The translations under genes were made by a program, and so were the position numbers. Positions 15,712 to 38,634 of a stretch of DNA of 64,000 nucleotides are shown piece by piece. Position 1 is the first letter of the stretch. Each line of letters opens with the position of its first letter. The notes under the pieces were generated by a model. That model saw only the letters and a list, made by a program, of their open reading frames with translations. It ran no database searches and had not been told where the DNA came from. This stretch comes from an uncultured cyanobacterium. Lineage in GTDB: Bacteria; Cyanobacteriota; Cyanobacteriia; Cyanobacteriales; Geitlerinemataceae. The stretch spans positions 1 through 64,000 of the forward strand of contig CALCCD010000010.1 in assembly GCA_937899645.1 (NCBI GenBank), given 5' to 3'.

Positions 15712-18700
15712 CTACCAGGGCGCACCAATCGTGGTGAACGCCGACCAGAAGTAGGGGTGGCTAAAGTCTCCACTAGCAGCGCGGCTGAGATCGGCAGGCA
15801 GGGGAATCGGCTCCTCCACACCCTCGGCGTAGAGCATTCCACTCTCAATCCGGACGTCGCCGCGAATCATGGCGAGCTGCGCCTCGCGTAGCGCTTCGGC
15901 CTTGACCCGCGCGCTCGCGAGGTGGTCGTATAGCTCGGTCATCAGCATGAACGTTGCCGCGTCGTCCACCGACCACAGGCTGGCGATCGCCGTCTTGACG
16001 CCTGCCGCCACGGCAAAGCCCGCAAAGCCCATCTCTGCAACATCGCTGCCCAGCGCGGTCTGGCAAGCAGACAAAACCAAAAGCTCCACTGCCGGTTCGT
16101 GCCAGCCCAGCTCGCGAATGTCGTCCAAGCCGACCTTTTCGTCCCAAAGCTGAATGTAAGAGTCCTGCGGCCCGCTGGCGCTGAACTCGGCATGGGTGGC
16201 GAGGTGGACGATTGGGTAAGGATTTTGCGCTTGCTCGGTCACGATGTTGTCGCGCGTGAACTTCTCGTTGAGAAATATTTCACCCTCGCGGCGGTGGTTG
16301 ACGAGGACTTCTAGCTCGAAAGGAACGGCAGGCAGCGGGTCGCCATCGGTGAATTCGCTAGCTCCGGCGGCGAGAACCGTCGCGCGCTCGTCGATTGGCC
16401 GATAGCGTGTATCGATTAGGCCGATGCTGGGAATTAGGCTGAGGCTGTAGTCTTCAATCAGGTAACGATCGCCGTCGTAGAGGGCCGCGATCGGCACGCC
16501 GCGCAGTCCCGCATCCATCGAAAACATTAGGGTATCGAGGCCGCGCGCTTCGATCTCGGGCAAAATCGGGCGAATCAGCCAGTCATAGAGCCTCGCGCCG
16601 TATATCTGGTGTACCTGAGTCTGTCGCTCCATCGAGCCGGTCAAGCTGGTTACATATCGACGTACCTCCCGTTCGAGGACACTGCGCTCGACTTTGACAG
16701 TCACAGTGACAGGCGCGTCTTCATTCGAGAGCAGCGCGATATCGAGTGCGCCATCACGCACAGAAACGTAAACGGCTCCCGTACGAACGCCCGTCGCGGC
16801 TTCGACTTGCGACATGGCCTCGCGAGTGGCCTCAATACTGCCGTCAAAGTCGGGATCTTCGCCCAGTTGGCGGGTGTATTCATCGCTGCGCTCCGCGTCG
16901 AGTTCGGCGAGGTCGATGGGATTCGTCTCGACAAACGTCAGCGGACTGGCAAGAAGATTGTTTGGAAGGAACAAGCCAGAGAAACCGGCATCGTTTTGAC
17001 CGCCATCGTCTGCATCCGGACTCGAACTCATGCCGGTGGAACTCGCCGAGTTGCTGTTGGTGTTGATGGTGACGTTGGGATCTAGGCTGCTCGCAAGCTG
17101 CGGAAAGCTATCAGCTTGCCGATTTCCCCGACCTTCGCCAGAATCGGCAGAGCCAGGAGCCGCTGCGTCTTCCGCGCCTAACACTTCGCCATTGAGGAAA
17201 ATGTCGCCGTCCGAGATCAGCTCGCCGGTGGTAATGTCGCGTCCGGCATCGATCGCAATCGTACCGTCTGGGGTCGTGATATTTCCGGTCGTGGCATCGC
17301 GCCCGGCATTGAGGTCGATATCACCGCTGGTTCCTTCCGGCGCGATCGAGGCGATATCTCCAGTGGTGATGTCGCGTCCGGCGTTGAGGCTGAGATCGCC
17401 ACTATTGCCAGTTTGGGCTTGGCTGGTTATGTCACCAGCAGTCACGTCGCGCCCGGCAGAGATATTGACGTCGCCGCTATTTGCCCCGCCGCTCGTGCTA
17501 ACGTCGCCAAGCGCGGCATCGAGCAGCGCAGAGAAATCAACGTTACCGGAACTACCACTTGCAGACTCCGTTGTGACATCGCCGCTGGTGATACTGCCTG
17601 CTTCTGACGCGACGGTCACGTTACCACTATCGCCGTCGCCGTCAGTGCTGCTGACAATGTTTCCGGTCGTAATATTCCCGGTGGCTGTGACAATCGCGCT
17701 GCCAGCATTATTGGTGTTGGTCGCGGTCGTGATGTTTTGTGTGGTGACGCCGCCGTCAGTCGCCGTGATGTCGATATTACCGGAGCCCGTGCTGGCGATC
17801 GAGCTGACGTTACCGGTGGCCACGTTTTGGCCGCCGATCGCGATATTGCCACTAGGGCCGACACCAGATTGGGTCACGACCTGTTGCGTACTGACGTCGC
17901 TGTTGCTGCTGGTGATATTAAGGTTGCCGCTGGCTGTACGTCCATAGGAGCGGATCGTGCCGCTGGTCGTGACGCCACTGTCGCCCGTCAGGTTGATATT
18001 GGAACCGCTTCCGTTGGTGGCGTAGCTATCGGCATCCCCGATGTCGATGTTTCCAGTGGAGGTGATGTCCACTCCGCCCGCGCTGGCCGCTGCTAGCCCA
18101 TCGGCCTGGGTTTGGATAACGTCAATACTGATGTCGCTGACGGCAATGACCTCTAGATTGCCACCATCGCCCGACGTGCTGGATGCATCGATGACGTTCG
18201 CCATCACCATGCCTTCGGTAGCTTCGAGGCGAACTGCGCCGGTCGTGTTGCCACTGCCATTCGTCGAGATAACTTCGTTAAGGACGAGAGCGGAGCCGGT
18301 GAGGTAGATCGTGCCGTTATTCGTGCCGCCTGAGGAAGTCACCGTATTGACGCGGATTATCGAGCCAGCTTCGAGCGTGATGTTTCCCGTTTCTCCCGAT
18401 GTTGCCTCGGTAATCAAGGTGTTGATGTCGATGCTGCCATCGGGCGTTGTAATTTCGATAATGCCCGAGTCCGCTTCTGGAACTTCCACCGGGTCGGAGA
18501 TATCGCGCAGCGCGTTCGCGAGCGAGTTGTAGGAGTAGATTAGTTGATATGTCGATGAGTCATCACCGCCCAGATCGTCGATAACCGATGAGATGTGTTC
18601 GGTGAGTGCCGACTCGACAGCAGAGGAGGGGCGACCCGCCGCCGCTAGCGCCGCGCGCGCCTCGCGATCGTAATGGTCGGCGAGCTGCACGAGGGTTTGC

Positions 18701-21615
18701 GCGCCCACCGCTGTCGAGCGCAGCGCGTTGATGCTCGACGTACCGCGATCGTGCTGGACGCTGATATTACCCCGCGTCGTTCCGAAGAAGGAGCCCGACT
18801 GCAAAACACCGGGAATGGTGATATCGCTCTCCGCGCGCAGGGTGATTCCACCGCGCGTGCTGCCGCGACGGCTGAGGTTATCGATCCCCTGCACGCGTAT
18901 CGTGTCGGGGCGATCGCCATCGTACGCGCCGATCGAAACGGGCTCCGAAGCGCCCACCACTCCAAAGGCGTCGATGCCGCTATCGAGATAGACATCTCCC
19001 GCAGCACGTAGGTCGACGCGACCGCCGTCGTTCACCCCCAGTGCGATGACCGGCCCGGTGATGCGCAGCCCTCCAGCACTGTAGATTGTCACATTGCCTG
19101 CAGAGTTGATTTCTCCGAGGGAGTAGGTGGTGACAAAGCCATTGACTGTTATCCCCTGGCCGTCACTGCTTTCCAAGAAGACGTTACCGCCGTTGCCGTT
19201 CTGCCCCGCGTTCGCGAGCAGGCTGCCCGTCGAGATGCTGCCGCCACCCGTCAGAGAAATCCCCCCGCCCTGCGACACAAAGCCAAAGCGACCTGAGGCA
19301 CCCGCATCGATTTGTTGGGTCTGGATATTGCTGCGACTGTCGAGCGAGACGTTGCCGCCTCGGCTCGCCCCGACCAACGAGTGAGATTCCGCCTCGATGC
19401 GCCCGATGGTCATGCTGCCCTCGCTGTCGAGCGCGATGTCTCCCGCGCGGCTGCCGCCGACGGAATCAGTTTCGATTTTCGCCGTCGTCAGATCGCCATC
19501 ACTGGTGATTTCGACCGAGCCTCCCTCGCCGAACGCGCAGTCTTCGCAGCCGAGATCGCCAGAAGTGTGCGTCTCGATCGAGCCGCCGATCGTCGTCCCC
19601 GCGCCACTCTCAATTTCGAGCGTTCCGCCGTTTCCGGCATTGCACCCAGACCCATCGCATTCAGCATACGTGCGAATCGCGCGAGCGTTTTCATTTCCAT
19701 CAACGAAGATTTCGCCGCCCGCGCTATCTAAGCGAACGTTTCCACCATCCCCCGACGAGCAGCCGTCTTCATCACAGAGGGAAAGCGCCGTGATACTTTC
19801 GATCGAGATGTCACCGCTGCCTTCAATCGTGATGCTGCCGCCGTCCCCTGCGACACATCCATCGCCACGGCAAGCAGCTCTCGTATAGAGCTGCCCCGTC
19901 CGAATCGTGCCATTGCTGGTTAGTCCGATCGAGCCACCGTCCCCTGCCGTGCAGGACGAGAAAAGGCCGAAGCAGTACGTATCCGCGCTAATCGCCCCAG
20001 TCTGGATGCCTCCATCGTGACTAATTATTGAAACATCTCCGGCAGGCCCGGATAGCAGTTGCAGTCGCGCGGTGCGAATATTGCCAACCGTTACGCTCGA
20101 ACCCGAGATCGAAACGTTCCGCCCCGGCGCAACGATGTCGTGAGCCGTTACACCGTCGTAGCCCACAAAACTCCCGCCATCCACGCCGTCTGAATCTGCA
20201 ATAAACTCAATCCGTCCCGTTCCGCGACTGAAATTTAGATCCGTCTCCAATGTGATGTCATTGGTTGCCTCCACCGTGACTTCACCTGTGATGGCTTCCA
20301 GCGAGGCGGCATTTACCGTTTCATTGCCGCCCGATATAGCCGCAGGCGCATCGGAGATCGTGACGTTCTCCGGGTCGAGCAACACCGACCCCGCCCGCCC
20401 GATCGCCGCACCCACGTCAACGCCACCACCAAACGCCAGCGCCCCCCGCCCCGAGGTCTCTACGAGGCCGCCATCGCCACCGAGCGCACCACCACGCGCT
20501 GCGATCTCGCCCAAGAAGACGGCCGTATCTTCTGCCCAAACGATAACTTCGCCGCCATCGCCGGTCTGGAGCGCGCTAGCGTCAAGGGACGAACCCGCGT
20601 CGATCTCCGTAAATTCCGCTGTCGGTAGCGTGCCACCACCACGATATTCTCCTCCAAGGTAAATTGCCCCCCCGCCCGATGCGCCCGACGCATCGATATT
20701 CGCCCCCGCGAGCATCACGCGATCGCCCAGCACTTGCGCTGTACCGCCGCTATCGCCCGACACGTCGAGCGCGCCCGTCACGACGCTGTCGCCTGCTGCC
20801 ACCACCGCGCCCGCGAGCCGCACGACGCCATTGACAATTTCTAGCGAACTGGCCGCCGTCACCTCACCACCCGCAAGCAGTTCCGGCAGTGCGATCGGCT
20901 CGATCCGGCTTTCGCCGATGCGATCTGCCATCACTTCCAGGCTCAGCACGTTTCCCGCCGCCGCGATGTGCAGCGTGCTGCCGCCGTTCGCGGCTGTGAC
21001 ACTCACGCCGCCACCCGATAGCTCGCCCACGTTCAGCACCGTCCCGCCGAACAGGTTCAGATTGGCGTCGCGATCGACCGACAGTTCGCCAAAATTGGCG
21101 ATCGCGCCCGCCGCCGCGCCGGAAAAATCGAGCGCGATTGGAGCGCCGACGAGCGCCGTCCAGTTCGCCACCCCCGCCGAATTAAACCATCCATCCTCAA
21201 ATTCGATGCCGCTTGCCGTCGTCGCCGTGAAATCACCCGCCACGTCCAGCCGCGCGTTCTCGCCGAAGACGATCCCCGCTGGGTTCATCAAAAAGAGGTC
21301 GGCGCTGCTCCCCGTCACCACGATCGAGCCGTCGATGCGCGACGCTCCACCTCCCGTCACCCGACCCAGCACGTTCCGCACGTTCGCTGGCGTGATGAAG
21401 TTTGCAACCTGGTTCGCCTCCAGCCCAAACGCTTCAAAGCTCTGAAATAGGTTCTCCCCGTCGCCAGACAGCTCGCCACCTCGGATGTCAAACTGGCCAT
21501 CGACGCGATCGACCTGCGTCTCGACCGAAGCCTCCGACGTAACGTTCGTCGCTAGCACGTCGGCGGAAAGCAGAGAAAACGCCAGAGTAGAACCGAGCAG
21601 AAGGAGTAGATGCAT
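15712..21615 (-). CDS. Giant TPS/filamentous-haemagglutinin protein with C-terminal CHAT protease domain (copy 1)
   Basis: The 1967-residue protein starts with a signal peptide (MHLLLLLGSTLAFSLL). The two-partner-secretion domain follows at about residues 35-160 (ENLFQSFEAF, NVLGRVTGGGASRIDG, LFLMNPAGIVFGENARL). Then comes a very long Gly/Asp/Thr-rich beta-helix of repeats such as SGDVNISAGRDVTAGDI. At the C-terminus a CHAT domain (about 1690-1967) keeps the caspase-like dyad His1808 (HLATHAEF) and Cys1851 (LSACQTALG). Family knowledge: TPS exoproteins cross the outer membrane through a TpsB pore, and CHAT domains are clan-CD cysteine peptidases. A surface-displayed or released protease is my inference. 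It lies 178 bp downstream of a paralogue. No TpsB gene is in the window. Confidence 0.9.
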   Translation of the reverse strand: MHLLLLLGSTLAFSLLSADVLATNVTSEASVETQVDRVDGQFDIRGGELSGDGENLFQSFEAFGLEANQVANFITPANVRNVLGRVTGGGASRIDGSIVVTGSSADLFLMNPAGIVFGENARLDVAGDFTATTASGIEFEDGWFNSAGVANWTALVGAPIALDFSGAAAGAIANFGELSVDRDANLNLFGGTVLNVGELSGGGVSVTAANGGSTLHIAAAGNVLSLEVMADRIGESRIEPIALPELLAGGEVTAASSLEIVNGVVRLAGAVVAAGDSVVTGALDVSGDSGGTAQVLGDRVMLAGANIDASGASGGGAIYLGGEYRGGGTLPTAEFTEIDAGSSLDASALQTGDGGEVIVWAEDTAVFLGEIAARGGALGGDGGLVETSGRGALAFGGGVDVGAAIGRAGSVLLDPENVTISDAPAAISGGNETVNAASLEAITGEVTVEATNDITLETDLNFSRGTGRIEFIADSDGVDGGSFVGYDGVTAHDIVAPGRNVSISGSSVTVGNIRTARLQLLSGPAGDVSIISHDGGIQTGAISADTYCFGLFSSCTAGDGGSIGLTSNGTIRTGQLYTRAACRGDGCVAGDGGSITIEGSGDISIESITALSLCDEDGCSSGDGGNVRLDSAGGEIFVDGNENARAIRTYAECDGSGCNAGNGGTLEIESGAGTTIGGSIETHTSGDLGCEDCAFGEGGSVEITSDGDLTTAKIETDSVGGSRAGDIALDSEGSMTIGRIEAESHSLVGASRGGNVSLDSRSNIQTQQIDAGASGRFGFVSQGGGISLTGGGSISTGSLLANAGQNGNGGNVFLESSDGQGITVNGFVTTYSLGEINSAGNVTIYSAGGLRITGPVIALGVNDGGRVDLRAAGDVYLDSGIDAFGVVGASEPVSIGAYDGDRPDTIRVQGIDNLSRRGSTRGGITLRAESDITIPGVLQSGSFFGTTRGNISVQHDRGTSSINALRSTAVGAQTLVQLADHYDREARAALAAAGRPSSAVESALTEHISSVIDDLGGDDSSTYQLIYSYNSLANALRDISDPVEVPEADSGIIEITTPDGSIDINTLITEATSGETGNITLEAGSIIRVNTVTSSGGTNNGTIYLTGSALVLNEVISTNGSGNTTGAVRLEATEGMVMANVIDASSTSGDGGNLEVIAVSDISIDVIQTQADGLAAASAGGVDITSTGNIDIGDADSYATNGSGSNINLTGDSGVTTSGTIRSYGRTASGNLNITSSNSDVSTQQVVTQSGVGPSGNIAIGGQNVATGNVSSIASTGSGNIDITATDGGVTTQNITTATNTNNAGSAIVTATGNITTGNIVSSTDGDGDSGNVTVASEAGSITSGDVTTESASGSSGNVDFSALLDAALGDVSTSGGANSGDVNISAGRDVTAGDITSQAQTGNSGDLSLNAGRDITTGDIASIAPEGTSGDIDLNAGRDATTGNITTPDGTIAIDAGRDITTGELISDGDIFLNGEVLGAEDAAAPGSADSGEGRGNRQADSFPQLASSLDPNVTINTNSNSASSTGMSSSPDADDGGQNDAGFSGLFLPNNLLASPLTFVETNPIDLAELDAERSDEYTRQLGEDPDFDGSIEATREAMSQVEAATGVRTGAVYVSVRDGALDIALLSNEDAPVTVTVKVERSVLEREVRRYVTSLTGSMERQTQVHQIYGARLYDWLIRPILPEIEARGLDTLMFSMDAGLRGVPIAALYDGDRYLIEDYSLSLIPSIGLIDTRYRPIDERATVLAAGASEFTDGDPLPAVPFELEVLVNHRREGEIFLNEKFTRDNIVTEQAQNPYPIVHLATHAEFSASGPQDSYIQLWDEKVGLDDIRELGWHEPAVELLVLSACQTALGSDVAEMGFAGFAVAAGVKTAIASLWSVDDAATFMLMTELYDHLASARVKAEALREAQLAMIRGDVRIESGMLYAEGVEEPIPLPADLSRAASGDFSHPYFWSAFTTIGAPW
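17215..17470 (-). repeat. Repeats of type AGRD(I/A/V)T(T/A)G in the TPS-CHAT stalk
   Basis: The motif AGRD followed by ITTG, ATTG or VTAG recurs five times here, at uneven spacing of about 17-24 residues (NAGRDITTGDI, NAGRDATTGNI, DAGRDITTGEL and similar). This is the regular rung pattern of a haemagglutinin beta-helix. The DNA copies are similar but not identical. Confidence 0.75.
19526..19980 (-). repeat. Five cysteine-pair repeats in TPS-CHAT copy 1
   Basis: Five units spaced about 30-45 residues apart each carry two cysteines closely followed by a Gly-Asp-Gly-Gly-like turn: CFGLFSSCTAGDGG, CRGDGCVAGDGG, CDEDGCSSGDGG, CDGSGCNAGNGG and GCEDCAFGEGG. Cysteines are otherwise rare in this protein. 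The pairs could form disulfides on the outer face of the helix or bind a metal. Confidence 0.8.
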
Positions 21616-21793
21616 GGGACAGCTGAATATTTTTTGCTACCACCATATATGTCACCTAGATTTCGATCGGATTTCGCAAATGTAACGATCGGTTTTCTCA
21701 ATCGACTGACATCAACTCCGTTCTTCCCTCCGCGCTGCAAATGATTGGGGGGTCATACTGTCCTTTAAGACAGCCTGAACGCTGGCATCCAAA

Positions 21794-24700
21794 CTACCAG
21801 GGCGAGCCGATCGCCGTGAATGCCGACCAGTAGTACGGGTGCGACAGCTCCGTATCGGGCAGTCCGGCTAGCTCTTCCGGTAATGGCAGCGGCTCGCCGA
21901 GGCCGACGATCGCGCCGTTTTCGATGCGGACTTCGCCGCGCAGCATCGCTACCTGCGCCCGCTGGAGCGCCATCGCCCGCGTCGGCGCATCCTGGAGCTG
22001 TGGGTAAAACTGGCTCATCAGCCCCAGCGTGCCGGTGTCGCTGACGTACCAGAGGCTGGCGATCGCGGTTTTGATTCCGGCCTTGACGGCGATTCCGGCA
22101 AAGCCCAGCTCGGCTTCTTCGTTGCCGACCGCTGTCTGGCAGGCGCTGAGGACGAGCAGCTCCAATGGCGGGTCGTGGAGCCCCAGGTCGCGGATTTCGT
22201 TGAGGAAAATCTTGCCGTCCCAAAGCTGAATGTAGGAGTTGTCGATGCTGCCTTCGAGGAACTGGGCGTGGGTCGCCAGGTGCAGGATCGGCAGCGACGA
22301 TTCGCCCTGGAAGACGGATAGCGGATTGCCGAAGATCGAGGCCGGATTTGCGAGAAGGTCGAGTGGTGACTGCTGGCGCTGCTTGACGAGGCGGTCTTGG
22401 GTGAATTCTTCGTTGAGAAAGCTCGTGCCGCCGCTCAGTTGGCCGACGATATCGACCTCGTAGGGGACGGCGGGGAGCTGGGAGAGTTCGGTGAATTCCG
22501 ACGCGCCCATCGCCAGCGCCGGGAGGCCGCTCAGGTCGCGCGGTCGCAGGTCTACCAGATTAAGGCTGGGCATGAGCCCGATCGCGAAGTCTTCGACGAG
22601 GTAGCGATCGCCGTCGTAGAGTGCCGCCAGAGGCAGGCCGCGCAGGCCGCTGTCGAGGGCGAAAAGCAGGGTGTCGATTCCCTGGGCTTCGAGTTCGTCG
22701 AGCATCGGCGCGATCGCCCAGTCGTAGAGCTGTTTGCCGTAGGTGGTGTGGCGTCCGAGTATGCGCAGGCGGCTGACGATCAGGTTGCTGCGGAGGTTAT
22801 CGACGGCACGCAGCAGCTCGCCGCGCGGGACGCGAGTGCTGCGGTAGATGGGCTTTTCGCCCGGTGTCGTGAGGATAGTTTCGAGGCGATCTTCGCGTGC
22901 GAAAACGTAGACGATCGCCGGTCTCGTCCCCGTGGCAGCTTCCACTTCGCTCAGGATTTCGCTGGCATTTTGAGAGACGTTGGTGTCTTCGAGGCTTTCG
23001 GCACTGGGAGCCTCTGACTCCAGCTCGAGGTGGGAAATAAACTCTTCGGTCATTGCAATATCGAGGTTCGCCATCGCCGCCTCGACATCACCGCGATCGA
23101 GGGCGGCGGCGGCGCGGGCGCGGGCGATATCGGAGGTCGATCGCGACAGTTTTTGGCTGCTGGAGGAGAGGGGGTCGAGCGCCAGTGTCGCCTCGGCGTT
23201 CGTGTCGATCGTCTCGGCTAGCAGATCGGCGGCGATCGCGGGCTCGGCCTCTGCCGGTATTTCGGTCTCTTCCGCAGAATCGTCGCCCGTATCTGTATTC
23301 GTGGGGGGAGATGGGGTCTCGGCCTCCTCAGCGGCATCGTCTGCGGGGCTCGTATCTTCGGGGGTAACCGGAGTCTCGGTCTCTTCTGGTATTTCGGGCT
23401 CTTCAGCGGGCTCGTCTTCGGGCTCTGTCGGATCGGCCACGGGGATGGGATCGATCGCGGTGGCGATGTTGACATCGAGCGTGTCGCTGTCGAATGGCTC
23501 GGTGAGCGTCGTGCCCGGCGGCAGCGCGTCGGCTCCGGTGGTTAGCGCCGCGATCGCACCGTTTTCGGTGGCGCGACCGATCTCGAACGTTATCCCAGCG
23601 GCCAGCGCGTTGTTCGTAATGGTTATCGTTCCCGGTGTCGCGCCCGTGGCGAGGATGCTGGCGATCGTGCCGCCCGTGCCGTTGACCGAGCGCGATAGCT
23701 GTAGCGCGAACGAGTCGATGATTACCGCCCCACCGGTGGCGCTGCCGGATACGTCGATCGCACCCAATTCGGCATCGCCTTGGCTCTGGAGCGCGACGCT
23801 GCCGCCGTCGGCGGTGCCGCTGGCGAGTAGGTCGCGGGCTTCGATGCCGCCTAGGCCATCGAGTTCGATCGCGCCGCCAGTGGTTCCCGTGGCGGTGATG
23901 TCGCCTTCGAGTTCGATCGCGAAGTTGCTGTCGATCGCAACTGCTCCCGCCGTACCCGCCGCCGCACTCGTGACGATCGTCTCGCCCTCGTATCTCCCTG
24001 TCACGTCCACTGTCACCGCGCCGCCGCCCGTTTGGCCGCTCGTGTCGATCGCGTCGATGTCGATATTGCCGCTGGCGACGAGGCTGACCGCGCCGCCGAT
24101 CGCGCTGCCAGAGGCACTGGATAGCGCTACGCGATCGGTCGCCGAATTCGGGCGAATATCGCCGCTCGTTGCCGAGACCGAGATTGCGCCGCCGCCCTGG
24201 GCTCCGTTTGCGGTCAGCGTCTCGAGGATGATGTCGTCGAAGCCGTTAGAGATCGCGATCGTGCCGCCCTCCCCGCTGCTGGAGCTGCTGTCGAGCTGAA
24301 TATCGGCGAGATCGACGCCGCGTGCCGCCGTTATCGCAATGCCGCCGCTGGTGGTGGCTCCGGTGGTGGTAAATGGCGTGCCGATGCCGGTTGCAAACGT
24401 GTCGATAACCACGGCATCGTTTTGGCTGACGAGCGCGATCGAGCCGCCCTCCCCGCTGCTGGCGCTGGTGTTGACATCACCATCGTTCGCGACTAGGCGC
24501 AGCGTGCCGTTGGCGGAAATCGTCACGTTTCCGCCGCGATCGGGGCCGCGCGTGTCGATTCCCAGTGCTGCGTTGTCGATGCCTGCATTGGTGGCCTGGA
24601 TCGATACGTCGCCGCCGGTTTGCGTCCCACTGGTGTCGATCGTGATGAAGCTGAGTTCGCTGCCGCCTGCCGAGAGGGTGACGTTGCCACCGGTGACTCC

Positions 24701-26290
24701 TGAGGTGTCGAGATCGAGTATCAGCAGCTCCTGTCCGGCGGTGGCGGTAATCGCGCCGCCTTGGGTCGCGATCGTGTTGCCGTCGATGCTGTCGGGCGAG
24801 TCGAGGATAACGCGGCCACCGGCGGTGGTGATGGTGTTGAAGTCGATATCGCGGTTGGCGAAGCGATCGAGCGTGGCGTCCGAGGTCAGAAAGAAGTCGG
24901 TTCCGTTGATGCTGACGATCGGTGGCGGATCGTCCGCGCCCGATCGCGACGATAGCCCCGCCCGGAAAATCAGTGACGGCTCGCCCGTCAAGATCGCCAC
25001 GTCGGGGTCGTCGGCATTGGCTGCCAGCAGCGTATCGGCCTGGGTAATTGAGATGTTGGACGCGACGATCGTGCCGCCCGCTTCCACTTTCAGCGACGCG
25101 CCGGTGTAGTCTCCAATAAAGACGTTGCCCGAAGAGCGGACGATCGGGTCGAAAAAGCTAACGAAAGTTCCCGGCTGGCCGGTGGTGTCCGCGACCAAGA
25201 AGCTGCCGCCATTTTGGAAGTTCGCATCGCCGGAAATGATGCCGTCGCTAACCAGCCAAAGGTTACCGCCACTGACAAAGGCCGGTTCGGCGCTGCCCAA
25301 GGCCAGGATATCCACCTCGCGATCGCCCCATACCACCAGGTCGCCGCCCGTAACGATCTGCGTCGGTCGGTCGGTGGCGTCGCGGACGATCGCGCGATTT
25401 CCCGCCCGGACGATCGCGCTGTCGGTGGTGTCGAGCTGCACGCCGTCGATCGCCACGTCTCCGGCGGCTTCGATCCGCAGGCGATCGCCAACCACCGTTC
25501 CGGAGAGCGCCACTTCGCCGCTCAGCAGACTTGGTAAATCGATTGGTCGGATCGGCTCGCGGTTATCGGACAGGCGATCGCGATCGATCTCCAAGCTCAG
25601 CACGCTGCCCGGAGCGCTCAGCCGCAGGTAGCCGCCTGGCGTAGCTGCAATGGCGATCTCGCCCGCGCTGAGGTTGCCGGAGCTGGAGACCGCACCGCCG
25701 AGCAGCCCGATCGCCGCGCTGGAACCGACGGCCAGCTCGCCACGATTGACGATCGCGCCGACCCCGCTCAATTCAAAGCCCACCGGGTCGCCGACGAACT
25801 GGCCGTAGTCGATCGCGCCGCGCCCAACGTCGAGCCAGCCCCCGCCAAATTCAACGCCACTCGCCGCCACCGCAAAAAAGTCGCCCGCTACATCCAGCCG
25901 CGCGGTCTCGCCGAAGATGACGCCTGCCGGGTCGATCAGGTACAGGTCGGCGCTGCTGCCGACGACTTGCAGGAGGCCGTCGATCGTCGTCGGGCCATTC
26001 AGCGTGCGGGTGAGGATGTTCTCGACGCTGGGGTCGGTGAGAAAGCGGGCGACGTCGTCGGCGCTGAGGCTGAGACGATCGAACTCGTGAAATAGGTTTG
26101 CCCCATCGCTGGAGCGCGCGCCGCCGTCGATTTGATAGACCGTGCCGCCTGTCGGGTCGATCGCAGTTTGCGGCTGGGTTTGCACCTGAGTTGCGCCGTC
26201 CGGTACGACTTGGCCGATCGCGGCGTTGGAGCCGAGCGCGATCGTCGAGCAACAGACCCAGGGCAGGAAGCGATGTTGAAAAGAGGCCAT
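21794..26290 (-). CDS. Giant TPS/filamentous-haemagglutinin protein with C-terminal CHAT protease domain (copy 2)
   Basis: This 1498-residue protein is a paralogue of the downstream gene. It has a signal peptide (MASFQHRFLPWVCC...AAIG), a TPS domain (ANLFHEFDRLSL, LQVVGSSADLYLIDPAGVIFGE) and a beta-helical stalk. Next is an acidic Pro/Glu/Thr linker of ~80 residues (about 940-1030, PEDEPAEEPEIPEETETP). A CHAT domain with His1341 (HLATHAQF) and Cys1384 (LSACQTAVG) ends the protein, so the proposed dyad is intact. It starts 59 bp downstream of the DUF4347-RTX gene and ends 178 bp before copy 1, all on the minus strand. Secretion and a proteolytic role are inferred from the families. The flexible linker may let the protease swing away from the stalk. 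Confidence 0.9.
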   Translation of the reverse strand: MASFQHRFLPWVCCSTIALGSNAAIGQVVPDGATQVQTQPQTAIDPTGGTVYQIDGGARSSDGANLFHEFDRLSLSADDVARFLTDPSVENILTRTLNGPTTIDGLLQVVGSSADLYLIDPAGVIFGETARLDVAGDFFAVAASGVEFGGGWLDVGRGAIDYGQFVGDPVGFELSGVGAIVNRGELAVGSSAAIGLLGGAVSSSGNLSAGEIAIAATPGGYLRLSAPGSVLSLEIDRDRLSDNREPIRPIDLPSLLSGEVALSGTVVGDRLRIEAAGDVAIDGVQLDTTDSAIVRAGNRAIVRDATDRPTQIVTGGDLVVWGDREVDILALGSAEPAFVSGGNLWLVSDGIISGDANFQNGGSFLVADTTGQPGTFVSFFDPIVRSSGNVFIGDYTGASLKVEAGGTIVASNISITQADTLLAANADDPDVAILTGEPSLIFRAGLSSRSGADDPPPIVSINGTDFFLTSDATLDRFANRDIDFNTITTAGGRVILDSPDSIDGNTIATQGGAITATAGQELLILDLDTSGVTGGNVTLSAGGSELSFITIDTSGTQTGGDVSIQATNAGIDNAALGIDTRGPDRGGNVTISANGTLRLVANDGDVNTSASSGEGGSIALVSQNDAVVIDTFATGIGTPFTTTGATTSGGIAITAARGVDLADIQLDSSSSSGEGGTIAISNGFDDIILETLTANGAQGGGAISVSATSGDIRPNSATDRVALSSASGSAIGGAVSLVASGNIDIDAIDTSGQTGGGAVTVDVTGRYEGETIVTSAAAGTAGAVAIDSNFAIELEGDITATGTTGGAIELDGLGGIEARDLLASGTADGGSVALQSQGDAELGAIDVSGSATGGAVIIDSFALQLSRSVNGTGGTIASILATGATPGTITITNNALAAGITFEIGRATENGAIAALTTGADALPPGTTLTEPFDSDTLDVNIATAIDPIPVADPTEPEDEPAEEPEIPEETETPVTPEDTSPADDAAEEAETPSPPTNTDTGDDSAEETEIPAEAEPAIAADLLAETIDTNAEATLALDPLSSSSQKLSRSTSDIARARAAAALDRGDVEAAMANLDIAMTEEFISHLELESEAPSAESLEDTNVSQNASEILSEVEAATGTRPAIVYVFAREDRLETILTTPGEKPIYRSTRVPRGELLRAVDNLRSNLIVSRLRILGRHTTYGKQLYDWAIAPMLDELEAQGIDTLLFALDSGLRGLPLAALYDGDRYLVEDFAIGLMPSLNLVDLRPRDLSGLPALAMGASEFTELSQLPAVPYEVDIVGQLSGGTSFLNEEFTQDRLVKQRQQSPLDLLANPASIFGNPLSVFQGESSLPILHLATHAQFLEGSIDNSYIQLWDGKIFLNEIRDLGLHDPPLELLVLSACQTAVGNEEAELGFAGIAVKAGIKTAIASLWYVSDTGTLGLMSQFYPQLQDAPTRAMALQRAQVAMLRGEVRIENGAIVGLGEPLPLPEELAGLPDTELSHPYYWSAFTAIGSPW

Positions 26291-26349
26291 GTTTCCTCGG
26301 TCAAATCTTCAGGGATGAGTGGGCGCGTGCCGCGAGGGCGATCGGGGAG

Positions 26350-28992
26350 CTATTCCAGCAAAATGACGTTGCCACCCGTCAGGTCGAGCGTTCGGCTGGT
26401 GATGTCACCGTCGATAAACGAGCTTTCCGCGAGATTGGTGGTCGAGACGCCGTTGAGGACGGCGATCGTCTGACCCGTGGCCGTGTGGGTCACGCGCGCC
26501 GCGCCATCTGCGTCCGTTAACGTGAGTTCGTCAAAGGAAATGCCGACCAGGCTGATGCGATCGCTGACGGGGCCAAAGCCTTCGATCGTGTCAGTTCCCG
26601 AGTCGAGGCCGACGACCGCCACATCGTTGCCGCCAGCGCCGAGGCTGAGGAAATCGTTGCCCGGGCCACCGTCGAGGATATCGTCGCCCGCGCCGCCGCT
26701 GAGCAGATCGTCGCCATCTTCGCCGTAGAGTTCGTCGTTGCCCTGCTGCCCGAACAGCGCATCCTGCCCTGCGCCGCCGAATAGCGCGTCGTCGTCCGCG
26801 CCGCCGTAGAGCACGTCGTTCGCGCCGTCTTCCGCATCCGCCGTCGCGTCGAAGGTGTTGCCGTAGATGATGTCTTTGCCCGTCCCGCCGAAGACGCGAT
26901 CCGCGCCGGTTCCGCCAACGAACGTTTGATCGACATCATCGTCGAGATCGACGCTGCCATTGTCTGGCGCATCGGCGGCGAGCTGGCTGCCCAGGAAATT
27001 ACCGAGAACGGTGGCGGTGAGCGGCGCGATCGTAATGTCGTTGAAGCCAGAATCAAAGCTGCTGACAGTGTGCGAAATCGTCGCGGTCTGCGTCTGGGCT
27101 GTCCCGGCAGTTGCGCCGTCGAAAGCCCCGCTGGTGGTGTCGAAGTTCACGGCAACGGTCTGTGGCACGTTCCAATCCAGCGGTGTGAAGGTCAGAGTGT
27201 TGGGCTCGACGGTAATCGACGGGCTGTCGTCGGTAATCGAGATAACGACATCGTCACTGGGCGGGGTGGCGAGGCTCAGCTCGTAGATATCGCCGGTAAA
27301 TTCGGTCGCGACCAGGCTGTTGCCGATGTTGTTGAGGGAGATGGCGATATCTTGGGTGAGGTCGCCGATATCGAAAACGGCCAACGCATTATCGTTGGAG
27401 CCCGCAACAAAGACCTGTTTGCCGTCCGGACTGAACGCCACATCGCTGGCAACGAGCAGACCATCCACTCCGACGCCGTCGCGAAACTCACCTAACGGGG
27501 TGAGGTTTCCCGTTCCCGGATCGCGCCGAAAGACCGAAAGCGCATTGTCGTTCTCTGCGGCAGTCAGCACGAGCGTCCCGTCTGGACTAACGACGACGGA
27601 TGCCACACCATCCAGACCCTCAATACCGACGCTGCCGTCTATAAGTCTCGGCGGGATAGGAAAGGGGATCGCACTCGGATCGACGATCGCTAGCGCATCA
27701 GCCGCCGGAGCGGCGACCAACACCTGCGAGCCATCGGGACTGACCGCAACGCCAGACGCTCCATCTAGCTCTCCAACTGCGCTCACGAAGCTGCTGGAGA
27801 AAGTGAGGTTGCCTGTTGACGCATTGCGATCGAATGCCGCAATCGAGCCGGGCGTTTGTCCCGCAACGAACACTTGGGTTCCATCCGGGCTGGCAGCAAC
27901 GTCGTCGGCTGCGGCAATCCCCGTGATAGTCACGCCATCATTCACAAGAGATGTGGAGAAAGCGATCGCGCCGGTGGTCGGGTCGCGATCGAAGACGACG
28001 AGCGAATTTGCGTTTTGACCCGTGACGAAGACTTGTCCACCATCGGGTGCAACAGCAACTCCTGCTGGAAAAACGAGATCCGTAATGCCACCAAATGTGT
28101 TCCGAAGCACATCCGAGAAGGCAACATTGCCGGTGGCCGCGTCGCGACCGAACACGGCCAGCGCGTCGTCGTCAGCCCCGGTGACAAAGACCTGAGTGCC
28201 ATCCGGGCTCACGGCAACATCCGTCGCGCTGTCCAGACCATCGACACCGCCCAGACCATCTGTAAACGACGTTCTGAACGAGAGAGTTCCGGTAGTCGTG
28301 TCGCGATCGAAAACACTCAGGGTACTACTGACTAAACTGGCGACAAAGACTTGCGTGCCATCGGGACTCACCGCCACGCTATCTGGGGAAGACAAGCCCG
28401 CCACGCCATCGACACCGTTGACGAGCGCTTGTCGGAAGGCGATCGCGCGAACCAGGGTCGATCGATACGCAACCCGAGCCCGACGATTCAGCACCCGCTC
28501 CGCTCCGCGCGGCCACCAGCCCGCCCCCACATCGCGATCGCTCGCCGCCACCGCCGCACCCGTCAGCTCCGAAATTTTCTCAACAAATTCCGCCCCCGCA
28601 TCGCCCGCCGCCACCCGACAGCTCAGCAGCGACAGCCGCGCCCCTGGCTGCATTCCGCCCGCAAACCAGCTTGCTAGTTCGTCCTCATAGCGATCGAGGT
28701 TGCCCAGCTCCAGCGTCCCCGCTCCGAGCTGCATCCCGCCCGGAAAGCCGTGGGCGACGATCGTCAGCGATCGCAGCGCTCCAAATTCCGTCCGCGCCCG
28801 CCGCAAAATCTCCGACACCTGAGCGATTCCGTCGCGCCCCGAATCCAGCACGTACGCCGCGACTCCCGGCTGCAAACCCGACAGCAGCAGATCGAGGTCG
28901 CCGACCCGCGCGTCGAAGATCGCAACATCTCGCGCGGTCGGGAGGGCAGAGATCGCCGCGCTGCTAAATGATTTCGAGCCGAAGGTATTCAT
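26350..28992 (-). CDS. DUF4347 / beta-propeller / RTX calcium-binding surface protein
   Basis: The start is set at the ATG at 28992 (MNTFGSKSFSS), giving 880 residues; a longer frame reaches 29091. Residues ~20-150 are a DUF4347 domain with His81 (IVAHGFPGG) and Cys125 (SLLSCRVAAGDAG). About 170-480 are propeller blades with VAVSPDGTQVFVA repeated about seven times. About 690-800 are RTX nonapeptides (GGAGDDILDGGPGND) that bind Ca2+. RTX proteins are usually exported by type I secretion with an uncleaved C-terminal signal, and no classical signal peptide is visible here. DUF4347 commonly heads large cyanobacterial surface proteins. The His/Cys arrangement recalls clan-CD peptidases, but activity is speculative. 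It is the first of the three giant genes. Confidence 0.85.
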   Translation of the reverse strand: MNTFGSKSFSSAAISALPTARDVAIFDARVGDLDLLLSGLQPGVAAYVLDSGRDGIAQVSEILRRARTEFGALRSLTIVAHGFPGGMQLGAGTLELGNLDRYEDELASWFAGGMQPGARLSLLSCRVAAGDAGAEFVEKISELTGAAVAASDRDVGAGWWPRGAERVLNRRARVAYRSTLVRAIAFRQALVNGVDGVAGLSSPDSVAVSPDGTQVFVASLVSSTLSVFDRDTTTGTLSFRTSFTDGLGGVDGLDSATDVAVSPDGTQVFVTGADDDALAVFGRDAATGNVAFSDVLRNTFGGITDLVFPAGVAVAPDGGQVFVTGQNANSLVVFDRDPTTGAIAFSTSLVNDGVTITGIAAADDVAASPDGTQVFVAGQTPGSIAAFDRNASTGNLTFSSSFVSAVGELDGASGVAVSPDGSQVLVAAPAADALAIVDPSAIPFPIPPRLIDGSVGIEGLDGVASVVVSPDGTLVLTAAENDNALSVFRRDPGTGNLTPLGEFRDGVGVDGLLVASDVAFSPDGKQVFVAGSNDNALAVFDIGDLTQDIAISLNNIGNSLVATEFTGDIYELSLATPPSDDVVISITDDSPSITVEPNTLTFTPLDWNVPQTVAVNFDTTSGAFDGATAGTAQTQTATISHTVSSFDSGFNDITIAPLTATVLGNFLGSQLAADAPDNGSVDLDDDVDQTFVGGTGADRVFGGTGKDIIYGNTFDATADAEDGANDVLYGGADDDALFGGAGQDALFGQQGNDELYGEDGDDLLSGGAGDDILDGGPGNDFLSLGAGGNDVAVVGLDSGTDTIEGFGPVSDRISLVGISFDELTLTDADGAARVTHTATGQTIAVLNGVSTTNLAESSFIDGDITSRTLDLTGGNVILLE
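26640..26930 (-). repeat. RTX nonapeptide repeat block
   Basis: About nine GGxGxDxxx-type units (for example GGADDDALF, GGAGQDALF, GEDGDDLLS, GGAGDDILD) are encoded here. They form the parallel beta-roll that binds calcium in secreted proteins. An insertion (TFDATADAEDGAND) interrupts the register once. Confidence 0.85.
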
Positions 28993-29194
28993 AACGGTTG
29001 GGCGATCGGGAAATCGCGAATCTGGGCGATCGCGCGGATTGGTGGAAGCTACCGCGATTATATTCGCCAGGCCCGAGGCCGATCGTCGCAAGCCTCACTC
29101 TCCGCAAAAAGACCTCTATCCATACGGCGATCGCCAGACTTGTCCAGACGAGTCCGGGTTGAGCCTTCGCAAGACGCCGTGGCCGCGATCGCCT

Positions 29195-29767
29195 TTAGCG
29201 CACAAACCCTAGGAGGTAAGACAACACCGACTCGCGGTTGCGCGAACGGGCCATCGCCTCATCGTCCACGGCGGCGAGGCCATCGAGGTACTCGCGATCG
29301 CTGTTTTGGCGCTCGGCGACTAGGTTCGCCAGCACTTCAGCGAAATCCGGGCGGCGCGACAGAAACACCGACAGCGCCTCACGGGGGATTTCGAGCAGGT
29401 GCGTCGGCGATAGCGTCTCGACCGTTGCCGTGCGTGGCACGCCCGCCAGTAGGCTAATCTCGCCGACCATGTCCCCGACGCCGAGCGTAAAGGTCTTGAC
29501 CTCGTCGCGTTTGCGAAAAGTCACCGTCCCGCCGAGGCGACCCGAGGCGACGATATAGGCCGAGTCGCCCGTATCTCCCTGCTTGAAGATTGCATACCCC
29601 GTCGGTAGCCGCCGCAGTTCGGTCGCGGCAAATAGCTGCCAGAAGTCGCGACTCTCGACAGTCGGCGTGGTCGAGGGCAGCAGGTCGAGCATCGCCGATT
29701 TAAGCGTGCGGAACAGGTTGCCCGGAGCGGTGGAATCGAGATGGTCGAGCTGAGTAAATGCAGGCAT
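29195..29767 (-). CDS. Cyclic nucleotide-binding domain protein
   Basis: This is a 190-residue single-domain protein. Residues ~40-155 fit the cNMP-binding fold: LPTGYAIFKQGDTGDSAYIVASGRL, then the phosphate-binding-cassette region GEISLLAGVPRTATVETL, then LLEIPREALSVFL. There is no DNA-binding helix-turn-helix after it; the C-terminus is a short helical tail (ESVLSYLLGFVR). It therefore looks like a stand-alone sensor or regulatory subunit rather than a Crp-type transcription factor. It sits 202 bp upstream of the DUF4347-RTX start on the same strand, so it might be co-regulated with the surface-protein block, though the gap leaves this open. Confidence 0.85.
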   Translation of the reverse strand: MPAFTQLDHLDSTAPGNLFRTLKSAMLDLLPSTTPTVESRDFWQLFAATELRRLPTGYAIFKQGDTGDSAYIVASGRLGGTVTFRKRDEVKTFTLGVGDMVGEISLLAGVPRTATVETLSPTHLLEIPREALSVFLSRRPDFAEVLANLVAERQNSDREYLDGLAAVDDEAMARSRNRESVLSYLLGFVR

Positions 29768-37038: not shown

Positions 37039-38634
37039 ATGAGCCTACCGCTAGTTATCGATCTCGCGCTCGGCATCGTCTTCATCTACCTGATTCTGAG
37101 CCTGCTCGCTTCGGAGATCCACGAGCTGCTGACGACGCTCATGCAGTGGCGCGCCGACCACCTGAAGCGATCGATTCGCCTGATGATCGATGGCGGCGGT
37201 AAGGTTGAAGCCGATCGCACCCTCCGCGAAGCCGACACCGAACGTCTCGCCGAAGCCACCGACACCCTGACCGATCGCCTCTACGCCCACCCGCTGATCA
37301 ACACGCTCAACCACGAGGCCACCGGCCATATCGCCGTGCTGATGCGCAAGCTCGGGGGCGGCGTCGTCCAGGCGTCGTACAAGTTCGCCGAAACGCTCTA
37401 CGGGATCTTCGGGCGCTTCTTCTCCAAAGACGGCACGCCGCCGCGCAATCCCTTCGCCCGTCAGACCAGCGCGCCGTCGTATATCCCTGCCGACACCTTT
37501 GCTCAAACGGTGGTCGAAACCTTCGAGCTGTCGAAGGTCGGGCGGCTGATTTCCCTCTCGCGTCTGCAAGAGCTCAAGCGCCAGCAGCTCAAGGACGTGC
37601 TGCGCCAGGTCAAAAATCTGGCAATGGACGAGTCGCAGGAGCTGGCCACCGATCGCCTGCGTCAGGTCGCGCGCGACTACGAGCAGATCGCGCTGAGCTT
37701 CGCCGATGGCGATACGCCGCTCTACGTCGCGATCGATCGCATGGGCCACGGCCTCTCGGGCTTTATCGACTTCTGCAACGACTTTATCGACGCCAGCGAT
37801 CCGGCGCGACCGTACTTTCTGTATCAGCTTCAGTACGTCTACGAGAAGTACTACAGCGACGCCGAGAAACCGGCGCTGATTGCCTCGCTCAAGCCCGACC
37901 TGGAGGAAGTGCTGGCGATGGTGCGCGACAAGCGCGAGATGTTCCACGAGCTACGCAGCACCGTCACGGACACCGACAGCCAAATTTATAAGAGCCTCAG
38001 CAACGTTATCCGCAACCTGCCCGAGATGCCGCCGCAGCTCCAGAAGAGCCTGAGTTCGATCGCCACGAACGTCGAGCAGCGCGCCGGAGACCTCGAAGAA
38101 GACCTGCGATCGCTCCAGGGCCAAATTGAAGGCTGGTTCGATAAGTCGATGACGCGAGCGTCCGGCGTTTACAAGCGCAACTCGCGCGGTGTGGCAATTC
38201 TGATTGGCTTCCTGGTGGCAGTGGCGACCAACGCCGACACGCTATTTATCGTCGATACCCTCTCTAACGACAGCGTACTGCGGACGACGGTGTCCGAGTT
38301 TGCCGTCACCCAAGTGGAGGTGCAGTCGCTCGACTCGATCGCGGAAGCCACGCCCGAACAGCTCGATGCCGAAATCGACGCCATCAAAGAAAGCGTTCGC
38401 GAATCACTCGACGACGTGTCGCTGCCGCTGGGTTGGGACGAAGCGACCCTGACGCTCCAGGCTGAAGAAAACTGGAAAGTGCCGCTGACCGAGACGCCGA
38501 TGCCCGGCGTGAAGCGCATCGTGGGCTGGGCGATCAGTGCGATCGCCATTTCGATGGGCGCGTCGTTCTGGTACGACCTGCTGCGTAAACTGCTGGGCGT
38601 CAAAGCGGGCAATACCGGCGGCACGGGCAAGTAG
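37039..38634 (+). CDS. Uncharacterised three-TM membrane protein
   Basis: I cannot assign a function to this 531-residue protein. A hydrophobic segment at 4-25 is followed by an E-rich amphipathic stretch (ASEIHELLTTLMQWRADHLKRS). A soluble, helical, charged region (~40-380) ends with a coiled-coil-like part (ATNVEQRAGDLEEDLRSLQGQIEG). TM segments at 383-406 and 493-513 enclose an acidic loop with many Asp/Glu. The C-terminal ASFWYDLLRKLLGVKAG is a recurrent ending of a widespread uncharacterised family whose members anchor in the inner membrane. The next gene (NADAR) is convergent, 73 bp away. Confidence 0.7.
   Translation: MSLPLVIDLALGIVFIYLILSLLASEIHELLTTLMQWRADHLKRSIRLMIDGGGKVEADRTLREADTERLAEATDTLTDRLYAHPLINTLNHEATGHIAVLMRKLGGGVVQASYKFAETLYGIFGRFFSKDGTPPRNPFARQTSAPSYIPADTFAQTVVETFELSKVGRLISLSRLQELKRQQLKDVLRQVKNLAMDESQELATDRLRQVARDYEQIALSFADGDTPLYVAIDRMGHGLSGFIDFCNDFIDASDPARPYFLYQLQYVYEKYYSDAEKPALIASLKPDLEEVLAMVRDKREMFHELRSTVTDTDSQIYKSLSNVIRNLPEMPPQLQKSLSSIATNVEQRAGDLEEDLRSLQGQIEGWFDKSMTRASGVYKRNSRGVAILIGFLVAVATNADTLFIVDTLSNDSVLRTTVSEFAVTQVEVQSLDSIAEATPEQLDAEIDAIKESVRESLDDVSLPLGWDEATLTLQAEENWKVPLTETPMPGVKRIVGWAISAIAISMGASFWYDLLRKLLGVKAGNTGGTGK

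What the first reader, a model, noticed from the sequence alone, without database searches (positions are those of the whole stretch)
15712..28992. Cell-surface protease island: three giant exported proteins with His/Cys dyads
Three consecutive minus-strand genes encode exported proteins of 1967, 1498 and 880 residues. Two fuse a TPS secretion domain and beta-helix to a CHAT domain with an intact His/Cys dyad (His1808/Cys1851 and His1341/Cys1384). The third has a DUF4347 domain with a similarly spaced His81/Cys125, then a propeller and RTX repeats. CHAT is an established clan-CD peptidase domain; DUF4347 as a caspase-like relative is my inference. Secreted caspase-like proteases on long stalks could act in self/non-self recognition, matrix processing or contact-dependent killing. 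The 59- and 178-bp spacing suggests one regulated unit.
Basis: partly seen in the sequence, partly recalled or inferred. Interest (0 to 1): 0.8.

Follow-up and report, generated by a model that had tools for sequence, protein, structure and literature searches.

The report
Exported caspase-like domains in a cyanobacterium
Three neighbouring genes of a cyanobacterium encode very large, probably exported proteins, each ending or beginning in a caspase-like domain; the parts are common in cyanobacteria and their neighbourhood is mostly accidental, but the two kinds of domain are now and then fused into one exported protein, which hints that they work together.

Summary
Two are TPS-CHAT exoproteins; the third is DUF4347-propeller-RTX, without a clear signal peptide, so probably type I secreted. 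The inference about DUF4347 holds: a confident model (pLDDT 91.8) matches a solved DUF4347 protein, Tce1 (Z 12.7), then SAVED-CHAT (8.8); TPR-CHAT, a C11 protease and caspases score about 6-7. Tce1's published His186/Cys240 pair aligns with this pair, and that paper already proposes protease activity. The 'island' as a unit is weakly supported: 1 of 77 named DUF4347 loci has a TPS-CHAT gene on the flanks held. Yet three other loci have the two as co-directional neighbours (about 0.2-0.5 expected), and TPS-DUF4347-CHAT fusions exist. Best reading: two common cyanobacterial families of exported, probably proteolytic proteins, adjacent here and loosely linked elsewhere. No activity, localisation or co-transcription was shown.

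The parts
15712..21615 (-). P0001, 1967-aa TPS-CHAT exoprotein
15724..16605 (-). CHAT domain of P0001, His1808/Cys1851
   Evidence: Pfam PF12770 E 1.5e-65; coordinates; dyad
20950..21528 (-). TPS secretion domain of P0001
   Evidence: Pfam PF05860 E 2e-33, coordinates
21794..26290 (-). P0002, 1498-aa TPS-CHAT exoprotein
21803..22741 (-). CHAT domain of P0002, His1341/Cys1384
   Evidence: Pfam PF12770 E 7.8e-61, coordinates
25649..26212 (-). TPS secretion domain of P0002
   Evidence: Pfam PF05860 E 3.2e-23, residues 27-214
26350..28992 (-). P0003, DUF4347-propeller-RTX protein, 880 aa from ATG (frame open to TTG at 29091, 913 aa)
28522..28926 (-). DUF4347 domain, His114/Cys158 of the 913-aa frame (81/125 of 880)
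   Evidence: Pfam PF14252 E 6.7e-32; model; fold search
27367..28431 (-). beta-propeller repeats (Lactonase-like); approximate limits
   Evidence: Pfam PF10282 E 1.9e-26, three stretches
26647..26913 (-). main cluster of RTX nonapeptides; approximate limits
   Evidence: Pfam PF00353; a regular expression finds motifs at residues 539, 727, 736, 773, 800, 809
29195..29767 (-). cyclic-nucleotide-binding (CRP-like) protein directly upstream of P0003, same strand; possible regulator, untested
   Evidence: Pfam PF00027; gap 202 bp to the ATG

Best explanation
P0001 and P0002 are orphan TpsA-type exoproteins: an N-terminal signal and TPS domain take them through a TpsB pore encoded elsewhere, a repeat stalk extends, and a C-terminal CHAT cysteine-protease domain is displayed. 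P0003 is an RTX protein that probably leaves by type I secretion and carries an N-terminal DUF4347 domain, itself a caspase/CHAT-fold putative cysteine protease, ahead of a propeller and Ca-binding RTX repeats. Both kinds most likely cleave proteins at or outside the cell surface (their own chains, matrix proteins or neighbours' surface proteins). They belong to large cyanobacterial families and lie together here mostly by chance; the two domains do share a task in some lineages, as fusions suggest. Shown: domains, dyads, predicted fold, paralogue numbers, gene neighbourhoods, one fusion read whole. Inferred: export, catalysis, substrates.
For: Pfam domains. CHAT His and Cys are the only invariant columns of 18 CHAT domains, 16-65% identical to P0001's. 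Own genome: 24 CHAT, 17 TPS, 7 DUF4347 and 2 ShlB matches; six ORFs carry TPS and CHAT together. DUF4347 in 44 of 59 genomes of the relatives set and P0002-like matches, mostly to the CHAT part, in 53 of 59, the own genome included in both; TPS and CHAT seen in one ORF in 11 of 13 genus and family relatives. DUF4347 model pLDDT 91.8: Z 12.7 to Tce1 (9QPE chain G), 8.8 to SAVED-CHAT, 7.2 to TPR-CHAT, 7.1 to a C11 protease, about 6-7 to caspases. DUF4347 His and Cys both present in 102 of 110 distinct domains from family searches. Tce1 His186/Cys240 align with this pair. HlyD-family protein over cut-off in the genome. Neighbourhood mostly not conserved.
Against: No activity or localisation data. 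Only 2 ShlB-type TpsB matches for 17 TPS matches, neither on this contig. The DUF4347 of the one fusion that I could read has Glu for His, so catalysis by it is dispensable there. P0003's Cys motif reads LLSC where 159 of 208 aligned rows read LYGC. Fold matches listed below Tce1 and SAVED-CHAT all have Z under 8, which the tool warns may reflect a common arrangement, and a dehydroquinate dehydratase scores 7.0 among them; Foldseek gives only one match at E <= 0.001, with dehydrogenases next. By sequence the DUF4347 profile meets Tce1 only at E 0.024, below a human protein at 0.0051 that seems to lack the dyad. Profile comparison of DUF4347 and CHAT is weak (E 0.024, probability 2%), though it pairs His with His and Cys with Cys.
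Confidence: 0.6

Rival explanations
1. A true protease island: P0003, P0002 and P0001 are one transcription unit whose two protease types act in series on the cell surface (for example DUF4347 cleaves and activates or releases the CHAT protein).
For: Same strand, 59 and 178 bp gaps. Co-directional DUF4347/TPS-CHAT neighbours in L302 (DUF4347 upstream, as here), L353 and L133 (TPS-CHAT upstream in both): 3 among about 205 distinct DUF4347 domains, where 0.22-0.50 are expected (counted after the fact, on assumed gene numbers). Of 97 order-level regions chosen for DUF4347, five hold a TPS-CHAT gene if those cut by the region's edge are completed (L289, L295, L302, L353 and the fusion L359), where 1.8-2.8 are expected. 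TPS-DUF4347-CHAT fusion G040:C6, read whole, and three more by equal open frame: G040:C39, G040:C283, G308:C22.
Against: 1 of 77 named loci with a TPS-CHAT ORF on the flanks held, up to 10 kb. In same-genus G002 the P0001 relative has no DUF4347 on its 18.8-kb contig and is not beside gcvP; in G001 the contigs held are too short to tell. Promoter- and terminator-like sites at chance level. Order differs between genomes.
Confidence: 0.2
2. Contact-dependent inhibition: a CdiA-like stalk delivers CHAT as a toxin into neighbours.
For: TPS N-terminus, long middle part and C-terminal enzymatic domain resemble CdiA in plan (CdiA plan recalled).
Against: No immunity-gene candidate after either CHAT end: P0002 is followed by P0001, and P0001 by convergent gcvP. 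No TpsB on this contig. The C-terminal domain is one conserved family in the paralogues aligned rather than varied toxins.
Confidence: 0.08
3. The CHAT and DUF4347 domains act as binding or structural modules, not enzymes.
For: His replaced in a few DUF4347 domains (Phe in L291 and L167, Glu in L359); divergent Cys motif in P0003.
Against: Both residues kept in 102 of 110 distinct domains from family searches, several exceptions being gaps in short fragments, and in all 18 CHAT domains aligned.
Confidence: 0.15

Closest known systems
Tce1 (PA0256) and Tce2 (PA2372), H3-T6SS putative cysteine protease effectors of Pseudomonas aeruginosa; Tce1 solved as 9QPE chain G (PMC13323088, passages and outline seen)
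   Same: Tce1 is DUF4347 (PMC8262886, passage seen; the PDB chain bears that name), same fold (Z 12.7), aligned His/Cys pair
   Different: Loaded into a T6SS Hcp ring and much smaller; here DUF4347 heads a propeller-RTX protein of a cyanobacterium. The paper compares it with TcdB; the words DUF4347 and caspase do not occur in its main text.
CHAT proteases TPR-CHAT/Csx29 (Craspase) and SAVED-CHAT
   Same: CHAT domain with His/Cys dyad; profile hits; the DUF4347 model also resembles them
   Different: Parts of defence systems with RNA- or nucleotide-sensing partners (recalled); here CHAT ends a TPS exoprotein, with no such partner among the neighbours scanned.
TpsA exoproteins such as FHA and CdiA
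   Same: N-terminal TPS domain, TIGR01901
   Different: C-terminal CHAT, no TpsB on this contig, no immunity-like gene.
Cyanobacterial orthocaspases (PMC8283722, passages seen)
   Same: Clan-CD type domains in cyanobacteria
   Different: In that survey CHAT accompanies one of 473 orthocaspases; hemagglutinin, secretion and DUF4347 do not occur in its text.

Membership tests
CHAT (PF12770) | Pfam profile over the curated cut-off | tested here: met
   221.9 and 206.5 bits against 24
CHAT (PF12770) | His/Cys dyad | tested here: met
   His1808/Cys1851, His1341/Cys1384; the only invariant columns of 18 domains
CHAT (PF12770) | proteolytic activity | not testable with these tools
   needs an assay; my structure model of this CHAT failed (pLDDT 43)
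TpsA of two-partner secretion | TPS secretion domain near the N-terminus | tested here: met
   116.8 and 83.4 bits against 33.5; TIGR01901
TpsA of two-partner secretion | Sec signal peptide | tested here: inconclusive
   hydrophobic N-terminus by hydropathy only
Complete two-partner locus (TpsA with adjacent TpsB) | adjacent TpsB gene | tested here: not met
   the only ShlB matches lie on other contigs, C37 and C108; hence orphan TpsA-like proteins, not a complete locus
DUF4347 (PF14252) | Pfam profile over the curated cut-off | tested here: met
   110.9 bits against 24.6
Caspase-like (clan CD) fold for DUF4347 | fold match to known members | tested here: met
   SAVED-CHAT Z 8.8, rmsd 3.5, 127 aligned; TPR-CHAT 7.2; C11 7.1; caspases about 6-7; a solved DUF4347 protein Z 12.7
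Caspase-like (clan CD) fold for DUF4347 | catalytic His and Cys close together in space | tested here: inconclusive
RTX / type I secreted protein | RTX nonapeptides in the C-terminal part | tested here: met
   PF00353 E 1.6e-18
RTX / type I secreted protein | type I exporter available | tested here: inconclusive
   one HlyD-family protein over cut-off, G000:C13; link to P0003 not testable
Contact-dependent inhibition (CdiA) | immunity gene after the C-terminal domain | tested here: not met
   P0002 is followed by P0001, P0001 by convergent gcvP

The most novel reading that the evidence does not exclude
Cyanobacteria run an extracellular proteolytic system in which two different caspase-fold modules, DUF4347 and CHAT, act together on exported proteins, encoded apart, side by side (as here), or fused in one TPS-DUF4347-CHAT exoprotein, with DUF4347 as regulator or activator of CHAT (its His lost in the one fusion read).
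Probability: 0.15. Interest if true: 0.85.

Novelty: new variant of a known kind. Interest (0 to 1): 0.5.

Why it matters
CHAT proteases are studied mainly as intracellular defence enzymes (recalled). Here a type that is common in the cyanobacteria searched is built for export, and a 'domain of unknown function' found in 44 of the 59 genomes searched (own included) turns out to have the same broad fold and dyad. If active, it makes surface proteolysis by caspase-like enzymes a testable cyanobacterial trait, and gives DUF4347 a biochemical hypothesis outside type VI secretion.

Tried and rejected
Structure of the P0001 CHAT region (3-sequence alignment): pLDDT 43, unusable, not searched. phmmer of the P0001 CHAT region against PDB gave only repeat-driven Tako8 matches, rejected. 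Ortholog search with whole P0003 in 148 genomes of the order (own included, at most 6 candidates scored in each): no other match covers the whole length; the longest, G125:C376, covers residues 16-632 at 28% identity, that is DUF4347 and propeller. Padloc: weak BovA match to the CHAT part of P0001 and P0004, taken as CHAT homology only. Plasmids: partial matches, all under 60% identity. Viral contigs: 1 DUF4347 locus. Literature: DUF4347 in 4 papers, of which one was opened; CHAT domain with hemagglutinin and cyanobacteria 0; in the other searches I recognised, from the listed titles and abstract starts, nothing describing TPS-CHAT proteins; one search listed 15 of 240, and the three papers were not opened. 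Flanks of the other P0002 relatives (L253-L261) show no DUF4347, but reach only 1.5 kb beyond the match; in the window the DUF4347 domain lies 2.2 kb from the P0002 start, so this tests nothing. That holds also for the P0002 relative of the same genus (G001:C338, L255). Families not listed by the fold search are not excluded.

Limits of counts: the 77 named loci were found with two peptide patterns that contain the His or the Cys, so their dyad count (92 of 95 distinct domains) is biased and the family-search count (102 of 110) is the fairer one. Many of the 77 loci have flanks shorter than 10 kb. One search used 18 of the 24 CHAT matches; L007 (close to L003 and L006) and the partial or weak matches L018 and L021-L024 were left out. 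One search used 55 of the 77 named loci, the viral one and the window (57 rows). Named loci and order-level regions overlap in places (for example L112 and L281, L176 and L277); the 205 domains are distinct sequences. Neighbour gaps in other genomes are between stop-to-stop frames, not annotated starts. Expected neighbour numbers rest on assumed 6-11 TPS-CHAT genes per 4500-5500 genes.

Full report
Observation. The three frames lie where stated. P0001 (15712-21615, 1967 aa) and P0002 (21794-26290, 1498 aa) each have an N-terminal TPS domain and a C-terminal CHAT domain; P0003 (26350-28992, 880 aa from ATG; open to a TTG at 29091) has DUF4347, a lactonase-like propeller and RTX repeats. Gaps (59 and 178 bp) and the named His and Cys residues are exact. 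Downstream is convergent gcvP, upstream a CRP-like gene, then on the other strand a 183-aa frame without a Pfam match and a SelO gene.

Setting. The genome has 4.55 Mb in 134 contigs. Its order is that of Kastovskya adunca: relative G026, 'same order', has a contig of 240141 bases with a DUF4347 match at the coordinates of the named locus L112. Relative G005, 'same family', is Geitlerinema sp. BBD 1991-9 by the same token: contig G005:C43 and the contig of L176 both have 27048 bases, and loci L277 and L176 show the same series of frame lengths. So the window is cyanobacterial; this is inference from matching contigs, not a label given by a tool.

CHAT. The genome has 24 CHAT matches, one place (C22) broken into pieces, and 17 TPS matches; six ORFs carry both: two here and one each on C5, C25, C99 and C103. 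In 18 aligned CHAT domains, 16-65% identical to P0001's, only the His and the Cys are invariant. P0002-like matches, mostly to the CHAT part, occur in 53 of 59 genomes, own included, and TPS and CHAT were seen in one ORF in 11 of 13 genus and family relatives; in the other two (G002, G006) frames are split or cut by contig ends. Only two ShlB-type TpsB matches exist and neither is on this contig, so P0001 and P0002 are orphan TpsA-like proteins.

DUF4347. A 57-sequence alignment headed by P0003 gave a confident model (pLDDT 91.8, pTM 0.88): an alternating alpha/beta fold in which the conserved His (model 61) and Cys (model 105) follow strands 53-59 and 94-103. Foldseek's first match is 9QPE chain G (E 1.7e-4); dehydrogenases and caspases follow at E above 0.001. 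VIA-align ranks 9QPE first (Z 12.7, 142 aligned, rmsd 2.7), then SAVED-CHAT (8.8), TPR-CHAT (7.2), a C11 protease (7.1), a dehydroquinate dehydratase (7.0) and many caspases (about 6-7). 9QPE chain G is named a DUF4347 protein in the PDB; by sequence alone the profile meets it only at E 0.024. It is Tce1 (PA0256), for which a 2026 paper proposes a His186/Cys240 cysteine-protease pair by comparison with TcdB; the related Tce2 impairs yeast growth unless its predicted active site is mutated, while Tce1 showed no such effect (PMC13323088, passages). That PA0256 holds DUF4347 is in PMC8262886 (passage). Counting by hand along the printed profile alignment, with the chain starting at residue 110 as the paper states, puts the DUF4347 His and Cys on Tce1 186 and 240. 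Family searches give both residues in 102 of 110 distinct domains. A direct profile comparison of DUF4347 with CHAT is weak (E 0.024, probability 2%) but pairs the catalytic positions.

Neighbourhood. Among 77 named DUF4347 loci with up to 10 kb flanks, one (L133) has a TPS-CHAT ORF; L138 has a CHAT and L176 a TPS without the other. In the same genus, the P0001 relative of G002 (C162, 18.8 kb, in three frames) has no DUF4347 on its contig and gcvP lies elsewhere, on C284, with no TPS-CHAT on the 20 kb held; in G001 the P0001 relative sits on a 3.8-kb contig (C485), too short to tell. In the family, G004 and G005 have TPS-CHAT and DUF4347 ORFs 6.4 and 10.4 kb apart on one strand. Of 99 order-level regions (97 chosen for DUF4347, 2 for TPS-CHAT), 14 hold some CHAT or TPS and 4 hold both in one ORF: L353, L359, and the two chosen ones. 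In three more (L289, L295, L302) the TPS end is inside the region and the CHAT end of the same open frame is given. So 5 of 97 DUF4347 regions have a TPS-CHAT gene, one of them fused, against 1.8-2.8 expected. The island is thus not a conserved unit, though the two gene kinds may be somewhat drawn to each other.

Signs of a real link. Co-directional immediate neighbours occur in L302 (111 bp, DUF4347 first as in the window), L353 (169 bp) and L133 (739 bp); 0.22-0.50 would be expected among about 205 domains, P 0.0016-0.014 (after the fact and on assumed gene numbers). More telling, G040:C6 encodes one protein with TPS, DUF4347, beta-helix and CHAT. Equal open-frame lengths and matching segments indicate the same in G040:C39, G040:C283 and G308:C22. 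Matches that run from TPS through DUF4347 without a stop occur in all 17 of 17 genomes that I chose for this from the best rows of a 388-genome search. In the one fusion whose letters I hold, DUF4347 has Glu for His but keeps Cys.

Mechanism. The most likely picture is display of caspase-like cysteine proteases outside the cell by two routes: CHAT on TPS stalks, and DUF4347 either on RTX proteins, probably by type I secretion (a HlyD-family gene over cut-off exists), or on TPS proteins. Substrates are unknown; processing of exported or matrix proteins, including their own chains, is my preferred guess because both families have several paralogues in this genome and no immunity-like gene follows the CHAT ends here. 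Killing is not excluded.

Novelty. In the searches for DUF4347 and for CHAT with secretion or hemagglutinin terms I recognised nothing that describes TPS-CHAT or TPS-DUF4347-CHAT proteins, going by titles and abstract starts; the library lacks most subscription papers and holds no preprints. The parts are known kinds; the exported combination is a variant.

Noticed in passing
   Followed up: partly
PDB 11xu_A1: Human ECT2L residues 291-458 match the DUF4347 profile weakly (E 0.0051), apparently without the His or Cys: a possible eukaryotic pseudo-enzyme relative.
   Followed up: no
own genome: 17 TPS-domain matches but only 2 ShlB-type TpsB matches: either promiscuous pores or exporters of another family.
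   Followed up: no
window 44399-47674 (+): A further TPS-domain protein (1091 aa) on the same contig with no CHAT.
   Followed up: no
G000:C22:8656-9381: A CHAT match split over several frames with a stop, probably a pseudogene.
   Followed up: no
G000:C43:36303-36635 (L048): A degenerate DUF4347 (E 1.4e-6) without the His and Cys motifs.
   Followed up: no
L133, L302, L353 and P0003: Propeller-type repeats (lactonase, FG-GAP or SBBP) follow DUF4347 in three of these four proteins, a lectin-like domain (under its cut-off) in the fourth.
   Followed up: partly
window 37039-38634 (+) and 41833-43551 (+): Two frames of 531 and 572 aa without any Pfam match at E 0.001.
   Followed up: no
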